Assembly: GCA_947313885.1 (NCBI GenBank)
Contig: CAMZNU010000010.1
Span: forward strand, 16,330-80,329
DNA: 64,000 nucleotides
From: an uncultured Clostridia bacterium
GTDB taxonomy: Bacteria; Bacillota; Clostridia; Lachnospirales; CAMZNU01
Direction of reading: 5' to 3'
Of this stretch, positions 1 through 63,788 are shown in pieces. The notes under the pieces were generated by a model. That model ran no database searches. It saw only the letters and a list, made by a program, of their open reading frames with translations, and was not told the origin of the DNA. Every line of letters starts with the position of its first letter. Position 1 is the stretch's first letter. A program made the translations under genes and the position numbers.

Positions 1-1
1 G

Positions 2-358
2 GAAAAAGGAATAAGAAAAATTTTAAACTTTGGGCATACGATAGGACACAGTATAGAGAGTTGTACAAACTTTGAGAAATATAGCCATGGTGAGGCTGTA
101 GGACTTGGAATGGTTAAAATGATGTATAAAAATAAAAACCAAAAAAGGTTAATAAACTTATTAAAAAAACTAAATATGCCTTATGAAATTAAATTAGATG
201 TTGAAAAAATAATAGAGATAATAAAATTTGATAAGAAAAGTGTAAGTAAGGAAGAAATAAATATAGTAGTAATAGATGAAGATGAAATAGGAAAATGCGA
301 AATAAAAAAAGTGACGTATAACTATTTAAAAAATTATTTAGAAGAAGGTGAAAAATAA
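2..358 (+). CDS. aroB: 3-dehydroquinate synthase, C-terminal part (cut by window start)
   Basis: This reading frame is open from base 2. It encodes the metal-binding C-terminal half of dehydroquinate synthase, which converts DAHP to 3-dehydroquinate in the shikimate pathway. The diagnostic motif [13 protein letters not shown] is followed by [11 protein letters not shown], supplying the histidines of the zinc site. An internal ATG at 110 lies inside this motif block and is not the true start, because the family signature begins upstream of it. The stop at 356-358 abuts the aroC start, so the genes are co-transcribed. The N-terminal NAD-binding part lies outside the window. Confidence 0.95.
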
Positions 359-1435
359 ATGAGTAGTATACAATTTAAAAATATAAAGATGAATATATTT
401 GGCGAATCACATAATGATTACATAGGTGGAACTATAGAGGGGATACAAGCAGGACATAAAATAAATTTAAACGTAATAAGAGAAGAAGTAGAAAAAAGAA
501 AACCAAAGGGGAACATTAGTACTAGTAGAAAAGAAGAGGATGATTTTAAAATAATTTCAGGTATTTTTAATGATAGAACAACAGGTATGCCAATAACGAT
601 AATAATAGAAAATAAAAATAAAAAATCGAAAGATTATGAAAAAACTAAAGATATACCACGTCCATCGCATAGTGATTATACGGCATTTAAAAAATATGAA
701 GGGTTTAATGATTATAGAGGTGGTGGGCATTTTTCGGGACGTCTTACAGCAGTATTTGTAGTGCTAGGTAGTATTTGTAAAAGTATATTAGAAAATACAG
801 AAGTAGAAATATTAGGACAAGTTAAAAGTATTGGGGAAATAGAGGGAGAAGATTTTTTAGACGTTAATTTTACAAAAGAAGTTTATGAAAATTTAAAAAG
901 TAATTTTCCAGTATGTAAAATGGAACATAAAGAAAAATTTATAAAAGAAATAGAAAAAGCAAAAAATAAAAATGATTCTGTAGGTGGCACGGTACAAATT
1001 ATGATAAGAGGGTTGCAAAGCGGTTTAGGAAATCCAATGTTTGAATCAGTTGAAAGTAACATATCAAAATTAATTTTTGGCATTCCAGGGGTAAAAGGTA
1101 TTGAATTTGGAAAAGGTATAGAAATTTCTAAAAGTAGTGGATCTAAAAGTAATGATAACTATAAAATAGAAAGTGGAGTAGTTAAAACTATTACTAATAA
1201 TTCAGGTGGGATAAACGGCGGAATAACGAACGGTATGGAAATAGTGTTTACAGTATATTTTAGACCGACGCCGTCAATAGGAATGGAACAAAAAAGTTTT
1301 AATTTAAATACATTAGAGGAAGTAACATTAGAAATAGAAGGACGACATGATCCGTGTATAGTACATAGAGGTAGTATAGTAGTAAAAAATATAATAGCGG
1401 TGTACGTACTAGATATGTATTTAGAAGGTGTATAA
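359..1435 (+). CDS. aroC: chorismate synthase
   Basis: Chorismate synthase makes chorismate from EPSP with reduced FMN. The 358-residue product has the usual length. Family motifs are GESHND (residues 15-20, where GESHG is more usual), RPSHSD (101-106), RGGGHFSGR (120-128) and GRHDPC near 328-333. The ATG follows the aroB stop with no gap, implying translational coupling. It is the second gene of an aroB-aroC-aroQ-aroA run whose genes abut. No frame damage is visible. Confidence 0.97.
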   Translation: MSSIQFKNIKMNIFGESHNDYIGGTIEGIQAGHKINLNVIREEVEKRKPKGNISTSRKEEDDFKIISGIFNDRTTGMPITIIIENKNKKSKDYEKTKDIPRPSHSDYTAFKKYEGFNDYRGGGHFSGRLTAVFVVLGSICKSILENTEVEILGQVKSIGEIEGEDFLDVNFTKEVYENLKSNFPVCKMEHKEKFIKEIEKAKNKNDSVGGTVQIMIRGLQSGLGNPMFESVESNISKLIFGIPGVKGIEFGKGIEISKSSGSKSNDNYKIESGVVKTITNNSGGINGGITNGMEIVFTVYFRPTPSIGMEQKSFNLNTLEEVTLEIEGRHDPCIVHRGSIVVKNIIAVYVLDMYLEGV

Positions 1436-1702
1436 ATGGATAAAATAGAAAATTTAAGAGAAGAAATAGATGTTATAAACAAGGATATAATAAAGTTGTT
1501 GATTAGTAGGTTTGAAATAAGTAAAAAAATAGGTGAAGAAAAAAAACTTATAAAAAAAAGTGTGTTAGATAAAAACCGTGAAGATGAAATATATATAAAT
1601 TTAGAAAAGCAGTTAAAAAATAGTGAATATAAAGTTGAAATAATAGAAATATTTAAAGAAGTTATTACAAGAAGTAAAGAAATACAAAAAAGAGGTAAAT
1701 AA
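1436..1702 (+). CDS. aroQ: chorismate mutase (AroQ type)
   Basis: This 88-residue, all-helical protein matches the monofunctional AroQ chorismate mutase fold. It has an N-terminal LREEIDVINKDIIKLLISRF helix with the active-site arginine and a VLDKNREDEI segment. It converts chorismate to prephenate for phenylalanine and tyrosine. It starts directly after the aroC stop and ends directly before aroA. No prephenate dehydratase or dehydrogenase domain is fused to it. Confidence 0.93.
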   Translation: MDKIENLREEIDVINKDIIKLLISRFEISKKIGEEKKLIKKSVLDKNREDEIYINLEKQLKNSEYKVEIIEIFKEVITRSKEIQKRGK

Positions 1703-3004
1703 ATGGATATTACAGTTAATAAAAGTGAGTTAAATGGAGAAATAATAATACCGCCATCAAAAAGTATGAGTCACCGTCAAATAATAAGCGGTAGTTTAAG
1801 TAAAGGGATAAGTAAAATAAGTAACATAGTATATTCAGAAGATATAAACGCTACTATTGATGCTATGGAAAGTTTAAATATACGAATAAAAAAGGAAAAA
1901 GATTGTGTAATAGTTGGACATGATAGTATAGAAGTAAAAAAAAATTATATAAATTGTAATGAATCGGGATCAACTATTAGGTTTTTAATACCTATAGCAG
2001 TTGCTGTATCAAAAAATGAAACAATAAAATTTGATGGTAAAGAAGGGTTAAGAAAAAGACCGTTACAAATTTATGAAGATGAGTTTGTAAAAAAAGGGAT
2101 TAGTTGGAATTGTAGTAATGATAATTTACCTGTTGAAATAAAAGGTGAGCTTAAAAGTGGAATTTATAAAATACGTGGAGATGTAAGTTCACAATTTATA
2201 ACAGGGTTATTATATGGATTGTCATTAGTAGAAGGGAAATCTAAAATAGAAATAATAGGAGATTTAAAATCAAAAGGGTACGTAGATCTTACGATTAAAT
2301 CGATGTTAGATTTTGGTGTAAAAGTTATAAATAATAATTATAAAAGTTTTGAAATAGAAAAAAGTGAATATAAACCATGTGATGTAATAGTAGAAGGCGA
2401 TTATTCACAACTTGCATTTTATGGCTTAGCAGGAGTTTTAGGGAAGGAGATAACAGTAAAAGGATTTAATGATAAAGAAAAAAGTTTGCAAGGTGATAAA
2501 GAAATAATAAAAATGTTAAAAAAGTTTGGCGTAAAGATAGAGGAATTTAAAGATGGGTATAAGTTTTATAAAAGCGAAACAAAAGGAATAGAAGTTGATG
2601 TAAGTGACGTACCAGATTTAGCCCCTGTTTTATGTTGTGTAGGAGCAATTAGCACAGGAGTTACAATAATAAAAGGTATAGAACGTTTAAAAATAAAAGA
2701 ATGTGATAGAGGTATGGCTATAGTAACAGAGCTTAGTAAACTTGGGTGTAACATAAAACATAAAGGTAGTTATATAGAGATTGTAGGTAGTAAATTAATA
2801 GGAAACGTTACGTTAAATAGTTATAACGATCATAGAATAGCTATGGCGTTAACAATACTAGGAAGTAGTATAGGAAATATAAAAATAAAAAATATTGAAA
2901 GTATAAATAAGTCGTATCCAGAATTTTTAAATGACTTTAAAAAAATAAAAGGTGACTTTAAAAAATCTAGATATAACATAATTATTGAAAATCAAGGAGA
3001 GTAA
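1703..3004 (+). CDS. aroA: 3-phosphoshikimate 1-carboxyvinyltransferase (EPSP synthase)
   Basis: EPSP synthase joins shikimate-3-phosphate and PEP. The 433-residue protein carries the PPSKSMSHR motif (residues 17-25), the NESGSTIRF segment (about 86-94), LRKRPL, GDVSSQF and the C-terminal NDHRIAMAL motif. The length is normal. It ends 1 nt before the GTG chosen for the next gene, so the aro operon probably continues into that membrane protein. Confidence 0.97.
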   Translation: MDITVNKSELNGEIIIPPSKSMSHRQIISGSLSKGISKISNIVYSEDINATIDAMESLNIRIKKEKDCVIVGHDSIEVKKNYINCNESGSTIRFLIPIAVAVSKNETIKFDGKEGLRKRPLQIYEDEFVKKGISWNCSNDNLPVEIKGELKSGIYKIRGDVSSQFITGLLYGLSLVEGKSKIEIIGDLKSKGYVDLTIKSMLDFGVKVINNNYKSFEIEKSEYKPCDVIVEGDYSQLAFYGLAGVLGKEITVKGFNDKEKSLQGDKEIIKMLKKFGVKIEEFKDGYKFYKSETKGIEVDVSDVPDLAPVLCCVGAISTGVTIIKGIERLKIKECDRGMAIVTELSKLGCNIKHKGSYIEIVGSKLIGNVTLNSYNDHRIAMALTILGSSIGNIKIKNIESINKSYPEFLNDFKKIKGDFKKSRYNIIIENQGE

Positions 3005-3005
3005 T

Positions 3006-4433
3006 GTGGAAGGAAAAAAACATATCATTATACTAGTAATATTTATATTTATACTGATAGGTGTAGTAATTTACTTTACACTAGCATATGAAAATAGTGA
3101 TGGTGTAAATATTAAAGAAAAAATATATACCTATGGAGAGGATTATTTCTTTATAACAGAAATAAAACAAAATGAAGAAAATATAAATGAGAGTGTAAAA
3201 ACTAAAATTCCTATAATGAATAAAAAGGGAATTATAGAAAACAATAAATTAATAATAAAATTACAATTAAGTAATGAAAAATTTAAATTAACGTACTTAG
3301 ATGAAAATGAAGAACTTAAAAAATTAGACTATATAAGTATTAATGATGAAATAATATTAGAAACAAAAGGTGTCATGTACGTAGAAAATAAAGACGGTAC
3401 ATATATATTAGGAAATAATTTAAATTATGTAGAAATAGGCGATGCTACAATTGTAAAAAAAGAAAACGAACCAATTAAAATTAAAAATGTAGGGGAAAAA
3501 ATGATTTTTGAATATGTAGTAAATAAAGATAGAAAAATGAGTATATGGGGAGCTTATTCAAAAGATGAGTTGTTTACATATGAAACATTTAAAGAAAAAT
3601 TTAATAGTCACAAACTAGGTAATGGGAGAGAATTATTAATAGATGGATATTATTTTAATACCCCTACAAGTTATGAACCTTATGAAGAAAATGCACTATG
3701 GAGAATACCGTCGGCGTATATTACGAATAATTTTATAAAGTACGGACATAGTATAGGGGAAAGTATAATAGGACAAAGTATGTTAAAAATATCTGTAAAT
3801 AATATAAACGATGAAGGATATATACCATCGAAACCAAAAAGCATGTGGTTAAGTGATGAATATGGCTATGAAAAATATTTTTTTGATACAAGATTTAATT
3901 CAGATACGATAGAAACTTTTTTAGTAGGATATATAAAGTATGGGGATGATGAATATAGAAACGCATATTTAAAAATGGGCGAGTACTATATAAATCATGT
4001 AAAAGAAAATAAACATATAAATTATAGTGAAGATGGAGAAGAAGGATGGCTTATGGAAGATTATAACCAAGAGGGAAATGATAACAAAGTCCATTCATCA
4101 TTAAATCATCAATTACATACGATGAAAGTGTTTTATGATATTTATTTAGAAGAGAAAGATGTAGAATATTTAAATGTTGCAAATAAAATGTTATACGGAA
4201 TAAAAAACATAAAAGATAAATATATAATAGAAGATGGTGGATTAGAGTATGCATATTTGCCAAATGGAGAGATGGGATTTGTAGATTATCCATATCTTAC
4301 GTATAATGATTTATTTTTAGCCCAGAAAACTATAGAAAAAATAAAGGGGTATAGAGATGATGATTTAGATTATTTAATGAGACATAAAAAAAAGCAAATG
4401 GATAGAGATGGTATAACAAATTATAAAAAATAA
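3006..4433 (+). CDS. membrane-anchored extracytoplasmic protein, function unknown
   Basis: I do not recognise a named family. The GTG at 3006 is chosen because AAGGAG at 2994-2999 lies six bases upstream; the TTG at 2985 would overlap aroA and has no comparable site. The 475-residue product has one hydrophobic N-terminal segment (about residues 6-26), then a beta-rich half. The C-terminal half is rich in aromatic residues and repeats helix pairs (ALWRIPSAYITN, FNSDTIETFLVGYI, HSSLNHQLHTMKVFYDIY). These resemble alpha/alpha-barrel sugar-active enzymes such as glucuronyl C5-epimerase C-termini. That similarity is by eye and weak. It is probably transcribed with the aro genes. Confidence 0.7.
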   Translation: MEGKKHIIILVIFIFILIGVVIYFTLAYENSDGVNIKEKIYTYGEDYFFITEIKQNEENINESVKTKIPIMNKKGIIENNKLIIKLQLSNEKFKLTYLDENEELKKLDYISINDEIILETKGVMYVENKDGTYILGNNLNYVEIGDATIVKKENEPIKIKNVGEKMIFEYVVNKDRKMSIWGAYSKDELFTYETFKEKFNSHKLGNGRELLIDGYYFNTPTSYEPYEENALWRIPSAYITNNFIKYGHSIGESIIGQSMLKISVNNINDEGYIPSKPKSMWLSDEYGYEKYFFDTRFNSDTIETFLVGYIKYGDDEYRNAYLKMGEYYINHVKENKHINYSEDGEEGWLMEDYNQEGNDNKVHSSLNHQLHTMKVFYDIYLEEKDVEYLNVANKMLYGIKNIKDKYIIEDGGLEYAYLPNGEMGFVDYPYLTYNDLFLAQKTIEKIKGYRDDDLDYLMRHKKKQMDRDGITNYKK

Positions 4434-4451
4434 ATCGAAGGTTGGTAAAAT

Positions 4452-5288
4452 ATGAAAAAAGTAATTTTTTGTGGATATGGAGAACTAGGGTTTCAATGTT
4501 TAAGAGAATTAAAAAAAAATAAATATGATATAAAATTTATTTTCACCCATAAAGATGTTAAAAATAATGAAGTTGAAAAATTTGCTATAGAAAATAAAAT
4601 AGAATATACATATGATGATAGTAGAAAACAAAAAATATTGTATATAGAAAAATTGAATCAAATAGAAGGTGAGTATTTAATTTCTGTAAATTATAGATAC
4701 ATATTAGAAAGAGAAATATTTGAAATTCAAAAATATGCGGTAAATATTCATGGCTCGTTGTTGCCCAAATATAGAGGGCGAACGCCCAATGTGTGGAGTA
4801 TTATTAATGGTGAAAAATATAGTGGTGTCACAGTACATTTAATAGATGATGGAATAGATACAGGAGATATAGTAAAGCAAATAAAAATAAAAATAGAAAA
4901 TAGTTATACAGGGTTTGAATTGCTAAAAAAATTTGAGGAAGTATATCCAAAAATAGTAATTGATAGTTTAGAAAAATTAGATAGAAATGAAAAATTAGAA
5001 AAACAAAATGAAGAAGAGGCAAGTTATTTTGGGAGAAGAACATCGATGATGGGATATATAGATTTTAATAAAGATAGCAATGAGGTAATAAATTTTGTAC
5101 GTAGCCAAAGTTACCCATATCCAGGAGCATATTATTATATTAGAGATGGAAGAAAAATAATAATTAATAAAATAAAGGTAAGTGAAAGGGAAAAAACTAT
5201 GCCTATCGGAATAATTAAAAAAGATGGTGGAAAATATTTTGTTAATTGTAAAAATGAAACATTACTATTAGAAAGTTATGAATTATAA
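4452..5288 (+). CDS. formyltransferase family protein (Fmt/ArnA-like paralogue)
   Basis: This 278-residue protein of the formyl-THF-dependent formyltransferase fold is about 40 residues shorter than Fmt. The catalytic triad is conserved: N98, H100 in NIHGSLLPKYRGRTP, and D136 in IDDGIDTGDI, with the same Asn-to-Asp spacing (38) as in E. coli Fmt. A short C-terminal domain with SYPYPGAYY follows. The true Fmt is at 36232-37182 beside def, so this copy probably formylates another amine such as an amino sugar. A 102-bp repeat begins at its stop codon. Confidence 0.82.
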   Translation: MKKVIFCGYGELGFQCLRELKKNKYDIKFIFTHKDVKNNEVEKFAIENKIEYTYDDSRKQKILYIEKLNQIEGEYLISVNYRYILEREIFEIQKYAVNIHGSLLPKYRGRTPNVWSIINGEKYSGVTVHLIDDGIDTGDIVKQIKIKIENSYTGFELLKKFEEVYPKIVIDSLEKLDRNEKLEKQNEEEASYFGRRTSMMGYIDFNKDSNEVINFVRSQSYPYPGAYYYIRDGRKIIINKIKVSEREKTMPIGIIKKDGGKYFVNCKNETLLLESYEL

Positions 5289-5386
5289 AAAATAAATATA
5301 ACTTATATTTATAAATTTTCAGATAAAAATTGACAAAAGATATTTAAACTTATATGATTAAAAAAATGATGTAGAAATACATAAAA
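5285..5386. repeat. 102-bp perfect direct repeat, copy 1
   Basis: Bases 5285-5386 are identical to 7264-7365 at an offset of 1979. The repeat starts at the stop codon of the formyltransferase gene. It contains a consensus promoter and the 5' strand of riboswitch stem P1, and stops just before what would be the aptamer core. Here it leads into a DUF488 gene. A looser match extends a few bases further left, to about 5281/7253. Confidence 0.97.
5330..5358 (+). promoter_or_regulatory. sigma-A promoter driving the DUF488 cassette (duplicated B12-operon promoter)
   Basis: TTGACA at 5330-5335, a 17-bp spacer, then TATGAT at 5353-5358. This is a near-perfect housekeeping promoter lying inside repeat copy 1. 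Transcription should start near 5365, with no aptamer following. Confidence 0.85.
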
Positions 5387-5398
5387 ATGGGGTTTATT

Positions 5399-5425
5399 AT
5401 GATTGTTGTATGTAAATTTAGATAA
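5399..5425 (+). other. possible 8-codon leader ORF
   Basis: An ATG at 5399, preceded by GGGG at 5389-5392, opens the short frame MIVVCKFR. Its stop overlaps the AAGGA ribosome site of the DUF488 gene at 5436. It could couple translation or be chance; nothing else supports it. Confidence 0.25.
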
Positions 5426-5435
5426 GGAAAATAAT

Positions 5436-6110
5436 ATGAGAAAGAATAAGGTTATATATACAATAGGATACTCTCCTTTTAAAATAAAAAGATTTATAGA
5501 AGTTTTAAAGCAGTATGAAATTTTATGCGTAATTGATGTTAGGAGTAACCCATATTCTAAAATGTATCCAGAATATAATAAAAATAATTTGGAGAATGAA
5601 TTAAAACAGATGGGAATACTTTATAGTAACTACAAAACAGAATTTGGAGCAAGACAAACAGATTTAAAATATTTTAGTAATGATAAATACTTAGACTTCA
5701 ATAAATATTCAGAATCTTGTTATTTTAAAGAAGGTATTAGAAAGATAGAAGAAGGAATGGCATTAAATTATGTTTTTGTCTTAATGTGTTCCGAAAAAGA
5801 CCCTATAATCTGCCATAGAAATATTATGGTTGCAAAGGCATTTTATAGTATTGGATATGAAATAAGAAATATTCTAGCAGATGGAAAATATGAGAAACAA
5901 GATAGTATCGAACAACGATTAGTAGACATATATTTTAAAAATAAAAATCAGATTGCACTATCTGAAGAATTTTACAAAGAAAATGTAAGGGAAAGTTATG
6001 AGTTGCAAAACAAAAAGATAGGGTATAAAAAAGAACAAGATAGTTATGGATGGAGCGATTATAATGAAGAAGCAACTTTTCACAATAGGATTTACGCAGA
6101 AAACAGCTGA
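5436..6110 (+). CDS. DUF488 domain protein (first of two)
   Basis: DUF488 family, function not established. The ATG at 5436 is preferred because AAGGA at 5424-5428 precedes it by 7 nt; a TTG at 5403 would add 11 residues. The 224-residue product shows the family signatures: TIGYSPF at the N-terminus, VIDVRSNPYSKMYPEYN, and LMCSEKDPIICHR with its Cys-His-Arg motif. It lies between the 102-bp repeats, and its last 47 bases overlap the second DUF488 gene. It is probably the first gene of a three-gene accessory operon read from the duplicated promoter. Confidence 0.85.
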   Translation: MRKNKVIYTIGYSPFKIKRFIEVLKQYEILCVIDVRSNPYSKMYPEYNKNNLENELKQMGILYSNYKTEFGARQTDLKYFSNDKYLDFNKYSESCYFKEGIRKIEEGMALNYVFVLMCSEKDPIICHRNIMVAKAFYSIGYEIRNILADGKYEKQDSIEQRLVDIYFKNKNQIALSEEFYKENVRESYELQNKKIGYKKEQDSYGWSDYNEEATFHNRIYAENS

Positions 6111-6516
6111 AAAATTCTTTGAAATACTTATAGATAATAATATTGAAGTAGTTCTAGACATTAGATTAAATAATACGTCGCAATTATCTGTTTTTTCTAA
6201 ATATCCAGATATAGAGTATTTTTTAAAAGTTATTTGTAATATGGAATACAGACATGATATAAAATTTGCTCCAGATGAGAATACTTTAAAAAAATATAAA
6301 AAAAAGGAAATAGATTGGATAGGATATGTTGATGAATTTAATAAAACAATGAGTAATAGAAATATAATAGATTATTTAAGTGAAAATTATTCAGATATAG
6401 CAAATAAAAACTATTGTTTGCTTTGTAGTGAGGCAAAAGAGAATATGTGTCATAGAAAGATTCTTTCTAATATACTAGCAAAGCATTTTAAAGGATTAAC
6501 AATAACACACTTATAA
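6064..6516 (+). CDS. DUF488 domain protein (second, shorter and divergent)
   Basis: This 150-residue product is a DUF488 paralogue of its upstream neighbour. It keeps FTIGFTQKTAEKFFEIL, VVLDIRLNN (in place of DVRSNP) and the closing CLLCSEAKENMCHRKI. The ATG at 6064 follows a GGAG about 8 nt upstream; an ATG at 6046 has no ribosome site. It overlaps the previous gene by 47 nt, so translation is coupled. The degenerate DIRLNN motif suggests a different role from the first copy. Function unknown. Confidence 0.8.
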   Translation: MKKQLFTIGFTQKTAEKFFEILIDNNIEVVLDIRLNNTSQLSVFSKYPDIEYFLKVICNMEYRHDIKFAPDENTLKKYKKKEIDWIGYVDEFNKTMSNRNIIDYLSENYSDIANKNYCLLCSEAKENMCHRKILSNILAKHFKGLTITHL

Positions 6517-6530
6517 ATGGGGGTTATAAT

Positions 6531-7180
6531 ATGAAAAAAGAGATAATAATACTAACGAAGAGTAGCAAAAATAATGAATACTGTGTAGCGGGAAAGGATA
6601 TATCAAATGGTAAATGGATAAGAGTTGTTTCAGAAACCGATGGTGGGGAAGTTCCCAAAAAAGATGTAAAATATTCTGATGGCAGTGAAGTGGAAATACT
6701 TGATATTGTAGAAATAACATTTAAAAAGCATGAACCTAAAGAACATCAATGTGAAAATTATATCTATGACAATAATGTAACATGGAAAAAAATGGAACGT
6801 AACACGGTTGAGGAAATAAAAAATACATAGATGAAGAAGAGGATATTTTTTTAGATACAAAGCCTTCTATTGCTTTGCGTGAGATAACTAAACTAGAAAA
6901 ATCATTGTTATTACTTAAGATAGAAAAAACAAAAGTTGTTCTGTTTGATGATGGAAATATAAAATTACGTTTCCATTATAAAAATGAAAAATATAAGAGT
7001 TTTCATATTACTGATCTAAAAATTAAAAAAATTAAAACAAAGGATGATCTATATATTGTAAATAATGAGATTAAAGAATCAGATAATATATTAGTTGTAG
7101 TTAGCTTGGCTAATAAACATACAGATGATAAATGTTATAAGGTGATAGCAAAAATATTTACCAATAAATCAGATAAATAA
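6531..7180 (+). pseudogene. dual-OB-domain protein, frameshifted in an A-run
   Basis: The first frame (6531-6830, 99 codons) starts MKKEIIILTKSSKNNEYC and has AGKDISNGKWIRVVS, as in dual-OB-fold proteins I recall beside DUF488 genes. It stops at TAG 6828-6830. The continuation lies in another frame and runs to 7180 with IDEEEDIFLDTKPSIALRE and a second beta-rich domain. One extra A in the A6 run at 6818-6823 restores a single frame of about 216 codons. So the gene is broken by a one-base loss, is slippage-controlled, or carries a sequencing error. Ribosome site GGGGG lies upstream of 6531. Confidence 0.78.
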
Positions 7181-7263
7181 TGAATTTAAGTATATTTTTT
7201 GAAGTATATGATTTATTCGAATAAAAGTTAAGATTTTTTTATGACAGTGACAAATTATAAAAA

Positions 7264-7365
7264 ATAAAAAATAAATATAACTTATATTTATAAATTTTCA
7301 GATAAAAATTGACAAAAGATATTTAAACTTATATGATTAAAAAAATGATGTAGAAATACATAAAA
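7264..7365. repeat. 102-bp perfect direct repeat, copy 2
   Basis: Identical to 5285-5386. This copy is in its functional context: promoter, transcription start and the 5' strand of the riboswitch P1 stem, with the aptamer core starting right after it. This makes copy 2 the likely native arrangement. Confidence 0.97.
7309..7337 (+). promoter_or_regulatory. promoter of the corrinoid uptake operon
   Basis: TTGACA at 7309-7314, a 17-bp spacer and TATGAT at 7332-7337. The predicted start near 7344 falls at the first bases of the P1 stem of the cobalamin riboswitch. Confidence 0.88.
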
Positions 7366-7497
7366 GGGAATTAAGTGAAAATCTTAAAACTGCCCCAGCA
7401 ACCGTAATATGGACGAAATGCAAATACCACTGCAATTAAATTAATTGTGGGAAGGTGCAAAGTAGGATGAAATTAAGTCGGTAGACCTATCATTTTT
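7341..7497 (+). ncRNA. cobalamin riboswitch aptamer
   Basis: The conserved core is present in order: AAGTGAAAATC, then ACTGCCCCAGCAACCGTAA (B12 box), CCACTG, GTGGGAAGGTG, AGGATGAAATTAAGTCGGTAGACC. P1 is formed by 7341-7349 pairing perfectly over 9 bp with 7489-7497. It precedes btuF, as expected for corrinoid uptake genes. I see no terminator between it and btuF, so the control step (translation or an alternative fold in 7498-7640) is unresolved. Confidence 0.95.
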
Positions 7498-7640
7498 AGT
7501 TACTATTCTTCTGGGATGTGAGAAAATGTAGGTTAATCAATTAAATATTAAATAAAAATAAAAATATTAAAGATTAAAACTATTTCGCTACCTGTAGAAT
7601 TGTAATTTGTTAATTATAATTTATTATGGAGGAGTTAATT

Positions 7641-8531
7641 ATGAAAAAAGTTTTAGTCTTATTTTTATTGGTTTTTTTAGTAGGGTGTTCTAATAACACA
7701 GAAGTAAAAGAGGAAGTAAAAGAAATTGTAGAAACAAAAGAAGAAGTTAGTAGTATTAATAGAATAATTTCAACAGCACCATCAAATACAGAAGTTATAG
7801 TAGGTTTAGGTTTAGGCGATAAAATAGTAGCTGTAGATAACTTTAGTGATAAATCAGAAATTCCGCATGACGTTGTGTTAATGGACATGATGGCACCAAA
7901 TATGGAATTAATAATGTCTTTAGAGCCAGATGTAATTATTACATCAAATCTTAATAGTGAAGGTGGTAGCCCCTTTGATCAGATAATAGATTTAGGTTAT
8001 AACGTTGTAAATATCGAAACAGCGAATTCAATAGAAGATATATATAGTAGTATAGAAGCAATAGGTATAGCAGTGGAAAAAGAAGAAGAATCAAAAATAA
8101 TGGTAAAAAATTTAAGAGAAGAAATTGAAGAAATAAGAGAGAAATCAAAACAAATAGAAGAGAGAAAAAAAGTATATTTTGAGTTAGGAAATTTTTCAGG
8201 TAGTTTATATAGTTTGGGGAATGGAACGTATATAGATGAAATTATAAGTGTAGTAGGTGGAGAAAACATTTTTCATGAACAGGAAAGTTGGATAGTAGTG
8301 TCAGGGGAGAGTATAGTAGATAAAGATCCAGAGATAATAGTAACTAGTTCAAGTATGGCAGATTCAGTAGCAGAGGAAATAAAAACGAGAGAAGGATTTA
8401 GTGAAGTTGAAGCGATTAAAAATGATAGAGTACATGTGTTAAAAACTAGTAATTTGTCAAGAGGATCACAAAAAGTAATAATAGGGATAAGAGAACTTGC
8501 GGAGGTTATGTATCCAAATGTTTATAAATAG
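7641..8531 (+). CDS. btuF: corrinoid ABC transporter, substrate-binding lipoprotein (BtuF-like)
   Basis: This periplasmic-binding-protein-like receptor is of the BtuF/FecB class. Starting at ATG 7641 (GGAGG at 7628-7632; the ATG at 7626 lies before the site), it has 296 residues. A lipoprotein signal ends in LVGC with C16 as the lipidated cysteine. The mature domain has IISTAPSNTEVIVGLGLGDKIVAVDNFS, EPDVIITSN, a long rigid helix (about 145-170) and a C-terminal lobe, as in class III binding proteins. The upstream cobalamin riboswitch identifies corrinoids as the likely ligand. Confidence 0.93.
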   Translation: MKKVLVLFLLVFLVGCSNNTEVKEEVKEIVETKEEVSSINRIISTAPSNTEVIVGLGLGDKIVAVDNFSDKSEIPHDVVLMDMMAPNMELIMSLEPDVIITSNLNSEGGSPFDQIIDLGYNVVNIETANSIEDIYSSIEAIGIAVEKEEESKIMVKNLREEIEEIREKSKQIEERKKVYFELGNFSGSLYSLGNGTYIDEIISVVGGENIFHEQESWIVVSGESIVDKDPEIIVTSSSMADSVAEEIKTREGFSEVEAIKNDRVHVLKTSNLSRGSQKVIIGIRELAEVMYPNVYK

Positions 8532-9528
8532 TAGTAAACTAAAATTTATAATTTTAATTAGTGTTTTAATAGTAGTAATTTTTTTAGGTGTGGCATTAGG
8601 AAGTGTACATATAGGGTTAAGAGATATAATAGAAATATTTAAAATAAAAATATTTAATTTAGATATGGAAATAGAAACACCAAAATACATGTCTATTATA
8701 TGGCAGTTAAGATTTCCAAGAGTGTTAGTAGGCATTTTATCAGGAAGTGCATTGGCTGTTAGTGGATTATTGTTCCAAACTATATTAAAAAATCCTATAG
8801 CATCACCGTATACATTAGGTGTATCAACAGGGGCATCAATAGGAGTTGCTATAGGAGTTATATTAGGTGTTAGTAATTTTATGTTATCGGTATTAGGATT
8901 TACAGTATCGATATTAGTAGTAGGTTTTATTTTATTAGTAGCGAGCTTATATGATAAATCGCTATCAAATGTTTCAATAATTTTAATAGGAATGGTAACG
9001 TCGTTAACTCTTAATGGATTTTTAACTTTATTAATTCTTTTTGCAGGAGAATCAAGTGGACAAATAATATATTGGCAAATGGGTTCATTATCGCTAAAAA
9101 CCTATAAAAACTTTGTAGACTTATTAGTTGTATTAGTAATAAGTGTAACGTACATATCATTTAAACATGTAGAGCTAGATATTTTAAGTTTTGGAGAATA
9201 TGAGGCGAAAAAAATAGGATTAGATGTTGGTAAATTAAAAATTATAATAATAGGTGTTGCAACATTATTAACAGCAGTAGTAGTATCGTTAAATGGTGTA
9301 ATAGGATTTATAGGGTTAGTGTCACCGCATATAGCGAGGAAAATTTTTGGAAGTAGACATAAATTATTAATACCAGGATCAATAATTATAGGAAGTATAA
9401 TATTAGTAAGTGCAGATATGGTAGCGAGGACAGTTATGCAACCATCAGAGTTACCAGTAGGAGCTATAACAGCTTTAATGGGTGGACCATTTTTTGGATA
9501 TGTGTATTTAAGAAAAGGGAAAAAATAA
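8518..9528 (+). CDS. btuC: corrinoid ABC transporter permease (FecCD/BtuC family)
   Basis: A multi-spanning FecCD-family permease of about 336 residues. ATG 8518 is chosen because it places the first hydrophobic helix correctly; GGAGG lies about 12 nt upstream and the TTG at 8497 would overlap further. Family motifs include RFPRVLVGILSGSALAVSG, NPIASPYTLGVSTGAS and GFIGLVSPHIARKIFG. The gene overlaps btuF by 14 nt and btuD by one base (TAATG). It forms the membrane channel of the B12 importer. Confidence 0.94.
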   Translation: MFINSSKLKFIILISVLIVVIFLGVALGSVHIGLRDIIEIFKIKIFNLDMEIETPKYMSIIWQLRFPRVLVGILSGSALAVSGLLFQTILKNPIASPYTLGVSTGASIGVAIGVILGVSNFMLSVLGFTVSILVVGFILLVASLYDKSLSNVSIILIGMVTSLTLNGFLTLLILFAGESSGQIIYWQMGSLSLKTYKNFVDLLVVLVISVTYISFKHVELDILSFGEYEAKKIGLDVGKLKIIIIGVATLLTAVVVSLNGVIGFIGLVSPHIARKIFGSRHKLLIPGSIIIGSIILVSADMVARTVMQPSELPVGAITALMGGPFFGYVYLRKGKK

Positions 9529-10283
9529 TGTTAAAAATCGAAAATATGAGTTGTGGGTATGACAATAAAAAAGTAATAAAAAATTTAAGCATTGAATTAG
9601 AAAAAGGTAAGTTATATGGAGTAATAGGTATAAATGGGTGTGGTAAAAGCACCCTTTTAAATGCAATATCATCATTAATAAAATATACAGGTTCAATTAA
9701 ATTAGAAAATAAGGAATTAAAGAAATTAAAAATAATAGATAGAGCAAAAGAAGTAAGTTATTTATCACAAAGTATAGAAAATAATGTAGACTTTACGGTA
9801 TATGAGACGGTAATATTGTATAGATATCCAATGATGAAAGGGTTAATAAGAACGCCGAGTCAAGAAGATAGAGAAACAGTAGAGAGTACACTAAAAAAAT
9901 TAAATTTATTAGAATTTAGAGATAGAAAAATAAAAGAGCTATCAGGTGGTCAAAAACAACGAGTTTTTTTAGCAGGGGCAATAGTAAATGAGCCGAAGAT
10001 TTTGCTGTTAGATGAGCCGACGAATCACTTAGATATAAAATATCAAATACAAACTATAGAGCTAGTAAAAAAAATTGGTAAAGAAAAAAATATAATAGTA
10101 GTTGCAGTTTTACATGACTTAAATATTGTTATGAAATATGTAGATAAAGTTTTGTTACTAAGAAAAGATGAGAAATATATATTTGATGATACGGATAAAG
10201 TGCTAAAAGGTTTTGATATAGAAGATGAATATAAATTCAACATAAAAAGATATATGGAGGATAGTTATAAAATATGGGTATAA
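9528..10283 (+). CDS. btuD: corrinoid ABC transporter ATPase
   Basis: This 251-residue ABC ATPase has Walker A GINGCGKST (34-42), signature LSGGQKQR (138-145), Walker B ILLLDEPTNHLD (158-169) and the switch histidine in VLHDLN. Its start overlaps the btuC stop. It powers the BtuCDF-type importer. The 3' end overlaps the next gene by 10 nt, so the PP-loop protein is made in the same operon. Confidence 0.95.
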   Translation: MLKIENMSCGYDNKKVIKNLSIELEKGKLYGVIGINGCGKSTLLNAISSLIKYTGSIKLENKELKKLKIIDRAKEVSYLSQSIENNVDFTVYETVILYRYPMMKGLIRTPSQEDRETVESTLKKLNLLEFRDRKIKELSGGQKQRVFLAGAIVNEPKILLLDEPTNHLDIKYQIQTIELVKKIGKEKNIIVVAVLHDLNIVMKYVDKVLLLRKDEKYIFDDTDKVLKGFDIEDEYKFNIKRYMEDSYKIWV

Positions 10284-10945
10284 CTAAAGAAAAGTTTTGT
10301 TTATCATATAGTTTAGGAAAAGATAGTACATTAGCATTAAATAGGATGATTGAAAAAGGACACAGACCAGTAGCACTTATAATATCAGTGAATGAAGATT
10401 ATAATCTTACGTGGTTTCATGGAGTAGAAAATAATTTTTTAGATAAAGTTTCAAAATCTTTAGGTATTAAAATAATAAAAGCAGTAGGAAACGGTAAAAA
10501 TTATAGAGAAGTTTTAAAGGATGGGTTAAAAGAAGCAAAAGGATTAGGAGCAACAAGTTGTGTTTTTGGGGATATAGATATAGAAGAACATAAAGAATGG
10601 GGAAATAAAATTTGTGAGGAAGTAGGTTTAAAAAGTGTATACCCTCTGTGGCAAGAAAATAGAGAAACAATAGTTAAAGAATTTATAAATAAAGGTTTTA
10701 AAGGGATAGTAAAAACGGTATCAAAAGAGTATAAAGTATCAAAAGAGTTTTTAGGACGTGATCTAAATTTAGAATTGTTAGAAGAGTTTAGAAAAATAGG
10801 AATAGACTTATGTGGTGAAAATGGTGAATATCATACATTTGTATATGATGGAAAACTATTTAAAGAGCCGATAAAATTTAAAAAAATGTCTATACATGAA
10901 AGTGAATATTCATATTCGTTAATGTTAGGTGAATTAGATGGGTAG
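10274..10945 (+). CDS. PP-loop ATPase of the diphthine-ammonia ligase-like family
   Basis: This 223-residue protein has an N-terminal PP-loop SLGKDS (13-18, where SGGKDS is usual), GATSCVFGDIDIEEHKEW and the C-terminal CGENGEYHTFV motif of the Dph6/MJ0570 family. Family members adenylate a carboxyl group and use ammonia to make an amide. Bacteria have no diphthamide, so its place in a cobalamin-riboswitch operon suggests a corrinoid-related amidation; that is inference. It overlaps both btuD and the CobQ-like gene. Confidence 0.82.
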   Translation: MGITKEKFCLSYSLGKDSTLALNRMIEKGHRPVALIISVNEDYNLTWFHGVENNFLDKVSKSLGIKIIKAVGNGKNYREVLKDGLKEAKGLGATSCVFGDIDIEEHKEWGNKICEEVGLKSVYPLWQENRETIVKEFINKGFKGIVKTVSKEYKVSKEFLGRDLNLELLEEFRKIGIDLCGENGEYHTFVYDGKLFKEPIKFKKMSIHESEYSYSLMLGELDG

Positions 10946-11735
10946 AAGTGTTGCAATACTTGGTACAGGGTCATCAGTTGGAAAAACATTAATAACTATG
11001 AGTTTATGTTATTACTACGGATATGAAAAACAAATGTTAGTATCACCGTTTAAAGCATTTAATTTATCAGGAGAATCATTTGAATTAGATGGTAGAACTA
11101 TAGGAAATGCACAATATATACAAAGTATAGCAAGTAATAAACTTTATAATTGTAAAATGAATCCTATATTAAAACAATACGATAATAATAAAATGAAAAA
11201 TATTGTTTTAGGAGATGAAGTAGATAAGTTAGATATATGTGAAATGAAAGAAATAGTTAATAGAAGTTATGATGATATAAAAAAAGAAAATGATATAATA
11301 ATTATAGAAGGAAGTGGAAGTTTTTTAGAATTGAACATAGATGATTTAGATATTCCAAATTTAATGTTAGTAAAAGAAAAAAAAATACCGATAATTATTG
11401 TATGCGACATTAGTAATGGAGGTGTATTTGGAAATTTATATGGACATATAAATCTTTTAGATGAACAGACTAGAAAACTTGTAAAAGGTATTATAATAAA
11501 TAAATTTGATGGTGAGCCTAAGTTTTTCGAAACGGGAAAAGAAATATTAGAAAAAATATGTAAAGTACCGATATTAGGAATAATACCCAAAATAGAAAAC
11601 ACGCTACCAGAGGAAGATGTTAAACATGTATATAAACATAAGTGTTTAAATTTAGAAGATGAAATAAAAAAGGTTTCAAGAGAAATAATAAAACATATGG
11701 AAATGGAATTAATAACGAACATAATAAGAAAATAA
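10938..11735 (+). CDS. CobQ-like synthetase domain protein lacking the glutaminase domain
   Basis: The 265-residue protein matches the N-terminal ATP-binding half of cobyric acid synthase: GTGSSVGKT (9-17), SPFKAFN (36-42), IGNAQ (55-59) and MNPIL (74-78). CobQ is normally about 500 residues with a C-terminal class I glutamine amidotransferase domain, which is absent here. The gene ends cleanly before a terminator, so it is not visibly truncated by mutation. It would need free ammonia or a partner. The overlapping PP-loop ATPase gene is an obvious candidate. The role in corrinoid salvage is inferred. Confidence 0.8.
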   Translation: MGRSVAILGTGSSVGKTLITMSLCYYYGYEKQMLVSPFKAFNLSGESFELDGRTIGNAQYIQSIASNKLYNCKMNPILKQYDNNKMKNIVLGDEVDKLDICEMKEIVNRSYDDIKKENDIIIIEGSGSFLELNIDDLDIPNLMLVKEKKIPIIIVCDISNGGVFGNLYGHINLLDEQTRKLVKGIIINKFDGEPKFFETGKEILEKICKVPILGIIPKIENTLPEEDVKHVYKHKCLNLEDEIKKVSREIIKHMEMELITNIIRK

Positions 11736-11763
11736 AAAAGCCCCTATAAGGGGTTTTTTTATT
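11734..11763. terminator. bidirectional terminator between the B12 operon and the hydratase gene
   Basis: A CCCCT/AGGGG stem with a three-base loop is flanked by A-rich sequence on the left and T7 on the right. It can stop transcripts from both convergent units. Confidence 0.85.
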
Positions 11764-11767
11764 TTAA

Positions 11768-12184
11768 TTATTTAGGTGGCATAACTGTAGCAGTTCCATC
11801 TACAACAATTTTGCCATCTTGATTTGTGCAAGTAGTTTTAAGTACAATTCTATTTTTCTCTGTAATAATTTCTGTAACTTCAGCTTTAGCAGTAATTGTA
11901 TCGCCAAATTTAACAGGTGCTAAAAACTTAAGATTTTGCCCTAAGTAAATAGTACCAGGACCTGGTAAATGCATACCAAGAACTGTAGAAATAAAAGAAC
12001 CTACAAGCATACCGTGAGCAATTCTACCTTTGAACATACTTTTAGATGCGATCACATCATTTACATGTGCAGGATTTAGATCACCAGTAATACCAGCAAA
12101 AAGATAAACATCACTTTCAGATATAGTTTTTTGAAAAGATGCGGTATCACCTAATTTAATTTCTTTAATCGTTTTACCATTCAT
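11768..12184 (-). CDS. MaoC-like (R)-specific enoyl-CoA hydratase
   Basis: This 138-residue hot-dog-fold hydratase carries AGITGDLNPAHVND with the catalytic Asp/His pair and GRIAHGMLVGSF. The start at 12184 has an AGGAGG site on the complementary strand (CCTCC at 12192-12196). An upstream in-frame extension to 12349 is hydrophobic and unrelated to the family, so it was excluded. It would hydrate crotonyl-CoA to (R)-3-hydroxybutyryl-CoA. It is divergent from the lysine operon, which produces crotonyl-CoA, so a link is plausible but inferred. Confidence 0.85.
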   Translation of the reverse strand: MNGKTIKEIKLGDTASFQKTISESDVYLFAGITGDLNPAHVNDVIASKSMFKGRIAHGMLVGSFISTVLGMHLPGPGTIYLGQNLKFLAPVKFGDTITAKAEVTEIITEKNRIVLKTTCTNQDGKIVVDGTATVMPPK

Positions 12185-12355
12185 AATAAAACCTCCTTTT
12201 GGTGGAATTATAACATAAAACATATTATAGAGCAATATACATAGAAAAAGGGCGAAAATAATACAATATAAAAACAATACAAATAGAAAAAAAGTAAATA
12301 GTAATATATTAATTTTAATATGTATAGAAAAATTAGTGTAAACATACAAAAACTA

Positions 12356-12384
12356 TTGACAGTGAAAAAAAATAAAAATATAAT
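12356..12384 (+). promoter_or_regulatory. promoter of the lysine fermentation operon
   Basis: TTGACA at 12356-12361, 17-bp spacer, TATAAT at 12379-12384: an exact consensus. The start near 12390 coincides with the first base of riboswitch stem P1. The rest of the 12185-12605 gap is AT-rich leader for the divergent hydratase, with nothing else recognised. Confidence 0.9.
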
Positions 12385-12387
12385 AAA

Positions 12388-12552
12388 GAAGATAGAGGAG
12401 CAGTTAGTAGGTAATAACATATGTTAAAGCTTAAAGTGGCTAATGATGTTATGAATTACTAAATTGCCGAAGAACAATATTAACTTTATAACATTGTTCT
12501 GGTACATAGGTTAAGCTATGTGTACTGTTACGAATTGTAAAGAGCTATCTAC
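12388..12552 (+). ncRNA. lysine riboswitch aptamer
   Basis: The L-box core is present: AAGATAGAGGAGC at the 5' side, TTGCCGAAG at 12464-12472, a hairpin ending in TTCTGG, TACTGTTACG, and the closing GAGCTATCT. P1 pairs 12390-12395 with 12545-12550. It precedes lysine degradation genes, not the usual biosynthesis or transport genes. The 3' strand of P1 lies inside the terminator that follows, so ligand binding should favour read-through. Confidence 0.93.
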
Positions 12553-12590
12553 ATACGGGGATACCCGTGTGTAGATAGCTCTTTTTCTTT
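12541..12590 (+). terminator. riboswitch-controlled intrinsic terminator
   Basis: Arms 12541-12559 and 12564-12582 form a 19-bp stem with one G-U pair and a GATA loop, followed by a T-rich run. The 5' arm contains the 3' strand of aptamer stem P1. The hexamer AGATAG at 12573-12578 in the 3' arm is identical to the P1 5' strand and competes for the same partner. Confidence 0.93.
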
Positions 12591-12605
12591 TAATAGGAGG
12601 ATATT

Positions 12606-12986
12606 ATGGAATCTTTAATAAGAATGAGAATGAGTATGCACGATGCACATTATGGTGGGAACTTAGTAGATGGTTCAAGAATGCTAAACCTTTTCGGGGA
12701 TGTTGCAACAGAATTATTAATAAAAAATGATGGAGATGAAGGTTTATTTAGAGCGTATACGGAAGTAGAATTTTTAGCACCTGTGTATGCAGGTGATTTT
12801 ATAGAAGCAGTAGGTAAAATTGTTAAAACAGGAAACACATCAAGAACGATGGAATTTGAGGCAAGAAAAGTTATAGCACCAAGAACAGATATAAGTGATT
12901 CAGCTTGTGATGTATTAGAACAACCAATAGTAGTATGTAGAGCGAAAGGTGTATGTGTAGTACCAAAAGAAAGTCAAAGGGGGTAA
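12606..12986 (+). CDS. kal: 3-aminobutyryl-CoA ammonia-lyase
   Basis: Kal removes ammonia from L-3-aminobutyryl-CoA to give crotonyl-CoA in lysine fermentation. The 126-residue hot-dog-fold protein has the expected length and the segment [24 protein letters not shown] precedes the ATG. It is the first gene after the lysine riboswitch and is 3 nt from kce. The identification rests on family resemblance and on its place among the other lysine-pathway genes. Confidence 0.93.
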
Positions 12987-12989
12987 AAA

Positions 12990-13805
12990 ATGGAGAAGTT
13001 AATAATCACGGCGGCTATTTCAGGTGCAGAAGTTACAAAAGAGCATAATCCAAATGTACCGTATACAGTAGATGAAATAGTAAGAGAGGCAAAAAGTGCC
13101 TATGATGCAGGAGCATCAATAATTCATTTGCATGTAAGAAATGATGATGGAAAGCCAACACAAGATAGAGAAAGATATAGACAATGTATAGATGCTATAA
13201 AAAAACAATGTAAAGATGTAATAGTTCAGCCGTCAACAGGTGGTGCAGTTGGTATGAGTAGTGAGGAGAGATTGCAACCAGTTGATTTAAAACCAGAGAT
13301 GGCTACGTTAGATTGTGGTACTTGTAACTTTGGTGGTGATGAAATATTTATAAATACAGAAAACATGATAAAAGAGTTTGGGCAAAAAATGATAGATTTA
13401 GGAGTTAAGCCAGAAGTTGAAGTATTTGATAAAGGAATGGTTGATACAGCTATAAGAATGAATAAAAAAGGATTTATAAAATCGCCTATGCATTTTGATT
13501 TTGTGTTAGGTGTAAATGGAGGAATGAGTGCTACGCCACGAGATGTAGTATATATGGTAGAAAGTATACCAACAGGTTCAACGTTTACAGTAGCAGGAAT
13601 AGGAAGACATCAATTTCCGATGGCGACACTAGCGATATTAATGGGTGGTCATGTAAGAGTAGGATTTGAAGATAATTTAAATATTGAAAAAGGTGTATTA
13701 GCAAAATCAAATGGAGAGCTTGTAGAGAAAGTTGTAAGAATAGCAAAAGAGTTAGGAAGAGAAATAGCTACACCAGAAGAAGCTAGAAAAATTTTAAACT
13801 TATAG
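12990..13805 (+). CDS. kce: 3-keto-5-aminohexanoate cleavage enzyme
   Basis: Kce condenses 5-amino-3-oxohexanoate with acetyl-CoA to give acetoacetate and 3-aminobutyryl-CoA. The 271-residue TIM-barrel protein has the zinc ligands H46 and H48 in IIHLHVRNDDG, a conserved E14, and a further acidic candidate ligand E227 in GFEDN. It lies directly between kal and the CoA-transferase genes, as the pathway requires. Confidence 0.95.
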   Translation: MEKLIITAAISGAEVTKEHNPNVPYTVDEIVREAKSAYDAGASIIHLHVRNDDGKPTQDRERYRQCIDAIKKQCKDVIVQPSTGGAVGMSSEERLQPVDLKPEMATLDCGTCNFGGDEIFINTENMIKEFGQKMIDLGVKPEVEVFDKGMVDTAIRMNKKGFIKSPMHFDFVLGVNGGMSATPRDVVYMVESIPTGSTFTVAGIGRHQFPMATLAILMGGHVRVGFEDNLNIEKGVLAKSNGELVEKVVRIAKELGREIATPEEARKILNL

Positions 13806-13813
13806 GGGGAAAA

Positions 13814-14464
13814 ATGAATAAGGTAAAAAAAATAGAGGAGTTAGAAAATTTATTTTTTGATGGCATGACGTTAATGATCGGAGGATTTTTAGGTTGTGGA
13901 ACGCCAGAGAAATTAATAGATTACGTAGTTAAGTTAAATATACAAAATATAGAAATAATAGCAAATGATACAACATTTGATAATGTAGGTGTTGGTAAAT
14001 TAATATCAAATGGTCAAGTAAAAAAAGTGATAGTGACCCATGTAGGAACGAATCCAACTACAGGAAAATTAATGTTTGAAAATAAATTAGAAGTTGAGTT
14101 ATCACCACAAGGAACATTAATAGAAAGAATACGAGCAGGTGGATATGGTTTAGGTGGAATATTAACAGCTACAGGAGTTGGTACAGAAGTAGAAGAGGGT
14201 AAAGAAAAAATAAAGATTAAAGGTAAAGAATATTTATTAGAATTACCGTTAAGAGCAGACGTATCGTTAGTGTATGGAACTAAGTGCGATAAGTTTGGAA
14301 ATACATATTATGAAGGTACGACAAAAAACTTTAATCCTATGATTTGTATGGCGGGGGATAAAGTAATAGTGCAAAGTGATGAAATAGTAGAAATAGGACA
14401 AATAGACGTTGAGAAAATTATGACACCAGGAGTAGTAGTAAACTACGTAGTGAAGGGGGAGTAA
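13814..14464 (+). CDS. atoD: acetoacetate/butyrate CoA-transferase, alpha subunit
   Basis: This is the alpha subunit of a heteromeric CoA transferase (216 residues). It has the glycine-rich [13 protein letters not shown] and the ARTIER-like region [14 protein letters not shown]. With the next gene it would move CoA from butyryl-CoA to acetoacetate, releasing butyrate and returning acetoacetyl-CoA to the pathway. The stop is one base from the beta-subunit start. Substrate assignment is from operon context. Confidence 0.92.
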
Positions 14465-14465
14465 G

Positions 14466-15128
14466 ATGATTAATGAAAAAACAGTAAAAGAAGTAATAGC
14501 AAAAAGGGTAGCAAGAGAATTAAAAGAAGGACAGTTAGTAAATTTAGGAATAGGGTTACCAACAATGGTATCAAACTATGTTGATAAAAATAAAATGATA
14601 ACATTTCAATCAGAAAATGGAATGGTAGGAATGGGAAAAGCACCAGAAGAAGGAAAGGAAAATGACAATATAAAAAATGCAGGTGGATCACATGTAACGG
14701 TAGAAAAAGAAGGTGCATTTTTTGATTCTAGTTATTCGTTTGGTTTAATAAGAGGTGGACATGTAGACGTTACAGTATTAGGAGCGTTACAAGTAGATGA
14801 AAAAGGAAATGTATCTAATTGGAAAATACCAAATAAACTGTTACCAGGAATGGGCGGTGCTATGGATTTAGTAGAAGGAGCAAAAAAAGTAATAATAGCA
14901 ATGCAACATACAGCAAGAGGGAAAGAAAAAATATTAAAGGAATGTAATTTACCATTTACAGCGAAGGGGGTAGTAAACTTAATTATAACAGAATATGGTG
15001 TAATGGAAGTAACTAAAGATGGTTTATTATTAAAAGAGATAAATAAAGAAACAACAGTAGAAGAAATGCAAAAAGTAACAGGAGCTAAGTTAATAATATC
15101 AGAAGATTTAAAAGAGATGACAGTATAA
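14466..15128 (+). CDS. atoA: acetoacetate/butyrate CoA-transferase, beta subunit
   Basis: The beta subunit (220 residues) carries the catalytic glutamate E50 in the SENG motif (49-52), then GMVGMGKAP and [19 protein letters not shown]. It pairs with the preceding alpha subunit. Its position in the lysine operon assigns it to acetoacetate activation with butyryl-CoA as donor. A 23-nt gap with GGGGAG separates it from kdd. Confidence 0.93.
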
Positions 15129-60741: not shown

Positions 60742-60867
60742 TATAAAAAAATAAAATAGAGATATTAATTATTAGTTGTAAATAATTTTAGATATTTTTA
60801 AATATAAAAAACTTTAAAAATATACAAAAAAATGCTATTATAAATAATAAAAAGAAGGGGGATTTTA

Positions 60868-60975: not shown

Positions 60976-60986
60976 AACAAAACGTA

Positions 60987-63785: not shown

Positions 63786-63788
63786 CAA

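What the first reader, a model, noticed from the sequence alone, without database searches (positions are those of the whole stretch)
5285..7365. Accessory cassette bracketed by perfect 102-bp direct repeats that duplicate a riboswitch operon's promoter
Seen: bases 5285-5386 equal 7264-7365 exactly. Each copy carries TTGACA-17-TATGAT. Copy 2 leads into the cobalamin riboswitch and btuF; copy 1 leads into two DUF488 genes and a dual-OB gene. Inference: a unit of about 1.98 kb entered by single-crossover (Campbell-type) recombination at the promoter, or by segment duplication. It thereby took a strong promoter without the B12 control. No recombinase lies inside. Perfect identity of noncoding DNA implies a recent or actively homogenised event, and the cassette could pop out again by recombination.
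Basis: partly seen in the sequence, partly recalled or inferred. Interest (0 to 1): 0.82.

Follow-up and report, generated by a model that had tools for sequence, protein, structure and literature searches.

The report
Defence operon inserted with promoter duplication
Three neighbouring genes of a candidate anti-virus type, one of them broken by a frameshift, lie between two identical 102-letter copies of a DNA stretch that holds the predicted promoter of a vitamin-B12 uptake operon; they were likely inserted by an event that copied this stretch, which would give them the promoter without its B12 sensor and would let them be lost again without a scar.

Summary
In detail: 5285-5386 equals 7264-7365 exactly (longest exact repeat in 100 shuffles: 21 bp). 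Each copy carries TTGACA-17-TATGAT; copy 2 also holds the first 37 nt of the cobalamin riboswitch, so copy 1 has the promoter plus a beheaded riboswitch. The cassette is DUF488-DUF488-DuOB, PADLOC's candidate defence module PDC-M45; relatives of its first protein turned up at 76 loci in several phyla, 65 with a DuOB. In two genomes a 1,948-bp M45 unit is 99.3% identical although the flanks share almost nothing, so it does move. Best reading: insertion with long target duplication (about 100 bp, no transposase), a mode described for restriction-modification systems, here with another defence cargo and promoter capture. No empty site could be tested: no genome of this family was drawn. A second M45 island bracketed by long repeats exists (L105, 132 bp, 97%), but such bracketing is not enriched (1 of 64 other loci, 3 of 325 control intervals). 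Perfect identity over 102 bp only bounds divergence at about 3%, so 'recent' is weakly supported.

The parts
4452..5288 (+). formyltransferase gene, left neighbour; the repeat begins one base before its stop codon
   Evidence: Pfam Formyl_trans_N and _C; ORF
5285..5386 (+). direct repeat copy 1: stop codon of the upstream gene, intergenic DNA, promoter-like site, first part of the riboswitch leader
   Evidence: identical to 7264-7365
5330..5358 (+). promoter-like TTGACA-17-TATGAT of copy 1, predicted to drive the cassette
5387..7263 (+). inserted unit between the repeats (1,877 bp)
5436..6110 (+). DUF488 protein, PDC-M45B (the listed ORF starts at TTG 5403)
   Evidence: Pfam 8.1e-21, PADLOC 6.6e-48
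6064..6516 (+). DUF488 protein, PDC-M45C (the listed ORF starts at 6046)
   Evidence: Pfam 2.9e-16, PADLOC 3.9e-47
6531..7180 (+). DuOB gene, PDC-M45A, broken: frameshift in an A-run near 6820 splits it into 6531-6830 and a second frame ending at 7180
   Evidence: both halves match Pfam DuOB (1.1e-32, 3.3e-13); PADLOC M45A on the first half only
7264..7365 (+). direct repeat copy 2
7309..7337 (+). promoter-like TTGACA-17-TATGAT of the B12 operon
7329..7508 (+). cobalamin riboswitch; its first 37 nt lie inside repeat copy 2
   Evidence: Rfam RF00174, 72.8 bits
7641..8531 (+). btuF-like periplasmic binding protein, first gene of the B12-uptake operon (the listed ORF starts at 7626)
   Evidence: Pfam Peripla_BP_2

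Best explanation
A three-gene operon of the candidate defence type PDC-M45 (DUF488, DUF488 and a frameshifted DuOB gene) lies between two identical 102-bp direct repeats and was likely inserted between a formyltransferase gene and the B12-uptake operon by an event that duplicated this target stretch, so that the left copy is predicted to drive the operon from the B12 promoter without the B12-sensing aptamer. The repeat begins at the stop codon of the left gene and ends inside the riboswitch leader, so both neighbours stay intact (shown by sequence). This is the architecture reported for restriction-modification systems as insertion with long target duplication (similarity shown; membership not proven). 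How the duplication arose is inferred: most likely a donor strand joined the chromosome at a break or fork and copying resumed about 100 bp back, an illegitimate or homology-facilitated event; RecA, ComEC and DprA genes are present in the genome. RecA-type recombination between the copies would delete the operon and restore the single-copy site exactly (inferred). What the operon does is inferred too: the first DUF488 model looks like a cysteine-phosphatase fold, and the DuOB model of a relative looks like tandem OB folds that bind DNA, which fits a DNA-sensing or DNA-modifying defence module, here possibly already inactive because of the frameshift.
For: 102-bp identity far beyond chance and the longest exact direct repeat of the window. 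Copy 1 begins at the stop codon of one neighbour and copy 2 runs into the intact riboswitch of the other, as a duplicated target would. PADLOC and Pfam name the module; both DUF488 matches of the genome lie in it. M45 moves: 1,948 bp at 99.3% between L061 and L085, near a tmRNA gene in one and a tRNA-Ile gene in the other. A second M45 island, L105, is bracketed by 132-bp repeats at 97%; copy 2 holds the 3' end of an intact SASP gene and copy 1 only that end. No recombinase among the ORFs of 80 aa or more inside; no inverted repeat of 25 bp or more in 1-14000, and none of the 25 longest of 42 short ones in 5370-7280 pairs the two ends of the insert; one tyrosine recombinase match in the whole held genome. 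Precedent: target duplications 'in the order of 100 bp' for R-M systems (PMC3874152, passages). Hint: an M45B protein 96% identical lies on a 1,936-bp contig; a k=31 contig between the repeats would be 1,937 bp.
Against: No empty site was seen; the 38 relatives drawn are all of other families. Long bracketing repeats are not enriched at M45 loci: 1 of 64 others against 3 of 325 control intervals (from two loci) at 80 bits or more (Fisher p 0.51); with 10 further loci 2 of 74 (p 0.23), the extra one, L187, being bracketed by flagellin-like gene parts at 81%, not by a target copy. The formyltransferase has no relative above 57% identity among the best 120 listed although btuF has one at 99%, so the left flank of the sister strain is unexplained. 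If the sister on the 1,936-bp contig carries the same repeats, the insertion predates that split and the identity needs homogenisation. That contig was not read, that 'lgn' means k=31 contigs is recalled, and five other proteins of the 120 listed also lie on contigs of 1,900-1,980 bp. The cassette's GC (25%) is like its neighbours' (25-30%), with only M45B a little higher at third positions (0.21 against 0.13-0.18). RecA, ComEC and DprA occur in 10 or more of 14 control genomes, so they do not show competence.
Confidence: 0.6

Rival explanations
1. Campbell-type integration: a circle carrying the cassette and one copy of the 102-bp stretch, for example popped out of another strain, recombined with the single chromosomal copy.
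For: The end product would look the same; RecA, ComEC and DprA genes are present. It is a plausible way to spread between strains once the structure exists.
Against: The circle must already hold a stretch found only in these two copies in the held genome, without a good match in 38 other genomes of the order, so it does not explain the first event. No replication gene is among the Pfam matches of the unit.
Confidence: 0.16
2. The cassette was resident first and the promoter stretch was later copied to its left side by a segmental duplication or gene conversion.
For: Identity of non-coding DNA alone does not order the events.
Against: It needs a separate accident that places the copy exactly at the stop codon of the left gene, and it leaves the arrival of a mobile module unexplained. 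One event is simpler.
Confidence: 0.11
3. The repeats are attachment sites of a site-specific recombinase acting in trans on a satellite-like unit.
For: Repeats of 100 bp occur at integrated elements (general knowledge); L105's repeats cover a gene 3' end, and other M45 units lie near tRNA or tmRNA genes.
Against: No integrase in the cassette and a single tyrosine recombinase match in the genome, C1:53591; serine recombinases and transposases were not searched genome-wide. The repeats of the two islands share no more than a 7-base match.
Confidence: 0.07
4. The second copy is an assembly artefact.
For: Genome in 49 contigs; no reads could be mapped.
Against: The bases next to the two copies differ at both ends, each copy sits in a sensible place (gene end, riboswitch), and the contig runs on for 80 kb. 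The 1,936-bp contig of a related strain would fit real repeats.
Confidence: 0.05

Closest known systems
Insertion with long target duplication of restriction-modification systems (Nobusato et al. 2000 and Furuta et al. 2010, not held; cited in PMC3874152, PMC3031569 and, Nobusato only, PMC1643837)
   Same: Defence-type genes, direct repeats of the order of 100 bp made of host target DNA, no transposase linked
   Different: Cargo is not an R-M system; the duplicated target carries a promoter and the start of a riboswitch; the empty site is not documented here
PADLOC phage-defence candidate PDC-M45 (DUF488 + DUF488 + DuOB)
   Same: All three components, DuOB last, the order found at 54 of 77 loci, window included
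   Different: DuOB is frameshifted; the promoter region looks borrowed from a B12 operon
Integrative elements with attachment-site repeats
   Same: Accessory genes between direct repeats that overlap a host gene edge
   Different: No integrase, under 2 kb, repeat not found elsewhere in the held genome

Membership tests
Insertion with long target duplication | Direct repeats of about 100 bp flanking the insert | tested here: met
   102 bp, 100%
Insertion with long target duplication | Repeat is host target DNA, present once in an empty relative | not testable with these tools
   copy edges match host genes on both sides, but the relatives drawn are all of other families
Insertion with long target duplication | No linked transposase, insertion sequence or terminal inverted repeats | tested here: met
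   no such gene among ORFs of 80 aa or more inside; no inverted repeat of 25 bp or more in 1-14000; among the 25 longest of 42 shorter ones in 5370-7280 none pairs the two ends
PDC-M45 candidate defence system | M45B and M45C (DUF488 pair) | tested here: met
   6.6e-48 and 3.9e-47
PDC-M45 candidate defence system | Intact M45A (DuOB) | tested here: not met
   two frames, each a partial DuOB match
PDC-M45 candidate defence system | Protection against phage | not testable with these tools
   none; PADLOC lists it as a candidate only
Integrase-driven element | Integrase in the element | tested here: not met
   no recombinase among ORFs of 80 aa or more inside; one tyrosine recombinase match elsewhere in the genome
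Cobalamin riboswitch leader | Aptamer downstream of the promoter: copy 2 | tested here: met
   72.8 bits
Cobalamin riboswitch leader | Aptamer downstream of the promoter: copy 1 | tested here: not met
   the only match at E up to 5 in 5250-7700 is the one behind copy 2

The most novel reading that the evidence does not exclude
Compact defence operons in general, not only restriction-modification genes, move without any recombinase by inserting with a target duplication of about 100 bp, which keeps both neighbours intact, hands the newcomer a host promoter cut free of its riboswitch, and keeps the insertion reversible, so that a population can switch between defended and undefended cells.
Probability: 0.2. 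Interest if true: 0.75.

Novelty: new variant of a known kind. Interest (0 to 1): 0.45.

Why it matters
How small defence operons without recombinases enter genomes is an open question. This locus is a clean case that can be tested by PCR or long reads, and it shows how an insertion could capture a promoter while discarding its riboswitch control and leaving both neighbours whole.

Tried and rejected
Empty site in relatives: 38 other genomes of the order gave no good match to the 437-bp stretch from the repeat to the start of btuF; nine of them had weak hits (best E 8.6e-5, 42.8 bits). btuF relatives in 146 genomes of the order (own included) reach at most 42% identity, over part of the protein; their neighbourhoods were not read. 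Flank DNA of L105 against the other 75 M45 loci: nothing at E 1e-5.

Enrichment of long bracketing repeats at M45 loci: not found. 77 loci including the window (76, of which L037 and L039 are near-identical); 12 dropped for flanks under 500 bp, 65 tested. At 60 bits the counts are 2 of 65 and 7 of 325. From I fetched 20 more stretches; nine have the contig lengths of loci already counted and were left out, eleven were new, and L183 was dropped because its contig ends 30 bp behind DuOB. Four genomes with DuOB matches were not fetched (G506 below the cut-off, G711 and G924 at contig starts, G934 partial). L187 (219 bits) is bracketed by parts of flagellin-like genes (named by eye) and L185 (72.5 bits) by a repeat that occurs again upstream. 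Neither looks like a target duplication.

Full report
Observation. The two 102-bp stretches are identical and are the longest exact direct repeat in the window; chance gives at most 21 bp in 100 dinucleotide shuffles of 1-14000. The window is C10:16330-80329 of a 1.55-Mb genome in 49 contigs, 95.8% complete. No other good copy was found in it. In 19 stretches (355 kb) plus the window, the other direct-repeat pairs of 35 bp or more and 85% or more lying 1-10 kb apart are a 36-bp CRISPR-like repeat and a 65-bp, 91% pair in a repetitive region of the window (60619/62887).

Anatomy. Copy 1 starts at base 5285, the last base before the stop codon of a formyltransferase gene (4452-5288, Pfam). Both copies hold TTGACA-17-TATGAT. 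Copy 2 overlaps the cobalamin riboswitch match by 37 nt (7329-7365 of 7329-7508) and leads to btuF. Copy 1 ends inside that leader, so the small first hairpin is kept in the predicted folds of both leaders (neither fold stands out from shuffles, z about -1) and the aptamer core is lost; the only Rfam match at E up to 5 in 5250-7700 is the one behind copy 2. No terminator-like site was found in 4400-8600. Read as a target duplication, the stretch copied runs from a stop codon to the start of the next leader, which leaves both neighbours whole. The left edge is blurred by AT-rich DNA: ungapped 114 nt at 96%.

Mobility. L061 and L085 share 1,948 bp at 99.3% covering the M45 genes, while their held flanks (10 kb left; 9 and 1.6 kb right) share only 223 bp at 78% and 65 bp at 80%; L061 has a tmRNA gene and L085 a tRNA-Ile gene upstream. 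So M45 moves as a unit of about 2 kb, near the 1.88 kb found here. L105, a roe-deer cecum Clostridia MAG by its title, has M45 plus a HipA_C protein between 132-bp repeats at 97%; the right copy covers the 3' end of an intact SASP gene (14594-14800, Pfam 1.8e-28), the left copy only that end. This is a second case of the same layout with other target DNA.

How general. Against this, long bracketing repeats at 80 bits or more were seen in 1 of 64 other M45 loci and in 3 of 325 control intervals, these from two loci (Fisher p 0.51). Adding 10 loci gives 2 of 74, the extra one being parts of flagellin-like genes (p 0.23). So the case rests on the anatomy of this locus and on precedent, not on enrichment. 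Twelve loci with flanks under 500 bp had been dropped.

Strain evidence. M45B has a 96%-identical relative on a 1,936-bp contig (P0001). If assembled with k=31 the unique part between the repeats would give 1,937 bp. That the source uses k=31 is recalled, the contig could not be read, and five more of the 120 listed proteins lie on contigs of 1,900-1,980 bp, so this is only a hint that another strain has the same bracketed unit. btuF has a 99% relative on a 13,243-bp contig, yet the formyltransferase has none above 57% among the best 120; this is unexplained. If the hint is right, the insertion is older than the split of these strains and the perfect identity would reflect homogenisation or slow drift; 0 of 102 differences only bounds divergence at about 3% (by hand).

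Mechanism. The genome has RecA, ComEC and DprA, as do most control genomes, one tyrosine recombinase match outside the window, and DUF488 matches only in the cassette. I favour an illegitimate or homology-facilitated insertion that recopied about 100 bp of target. A circle integrating by single crossover gives the same product but presupposes the repeat on the circle.

Literature. [quoted passage not shown] PMC1643837 (passages) calls the pattern frequently associated with R-M genes in Helicobacter pylori; PMC3031569 (passages) speaks of long and variable target duplications by all types of R-M systems; PMC3154945 (passages) says 'sometimes'; PMC4978471 (passages) offers it as possible for one R-M cluster. 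PMC2654758 was seen only in its reference list; PMC2869330 (passages) reports long flanking repeats at moved plant genes. The primary papers (Nobusato 2000, Furuta 2010) and the rhodanese-phosphatase paper (Burroughs and Aravind 2023, title seen; that it treats DUF488 is recalled) are not held.

Verdict. It is a new variant of a known kind: a non-R-M candidate defence operon in the long-target-duplication layout, with promoter capture and a beheaded riboswitch.

Noticed in passing
G000 C10:25-1576 (L127), about 15 kb left of the window: CRISPR-like array at the contig start: a 36-bp repeat seen at 25 and 1541, with a further copy about 66 bp after the first (recognised by eye).
   Followed up: no
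window 60814-62720: Array of 15-bp period repeats, probably inside a repetitive coding region, with a 65-bp repeat at 60619 and 62887.
   Followed up: no
window 63565-63987: Two near-tandem copies of about 210 bp at 91%.
   Followed up: no
window 12385-12555: Lysine riboswitch (56.9 bits) ahead of a beta-keto acid cleavage enzyme gene at 12990-13805, which suggests a lysine fermentation operon.
   Followed up: no
L105 9208-14512: M45 island with a long DuOB protein (694 aa) and a HipA_C-type protein between 132-bp repeats.
   Followed up: partly
L061 9861-11807 and L085 9861-11808: M45 unit 99.3% identical in two genomes at different places, near tmRNA and tRNA-Ile genes: likely recent transfer.
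   Followed up: partly
L185 4582-7934: Dispersed repeat of about 60-70 bp (82-88%) on both sides of M45.
   Followed up: partly
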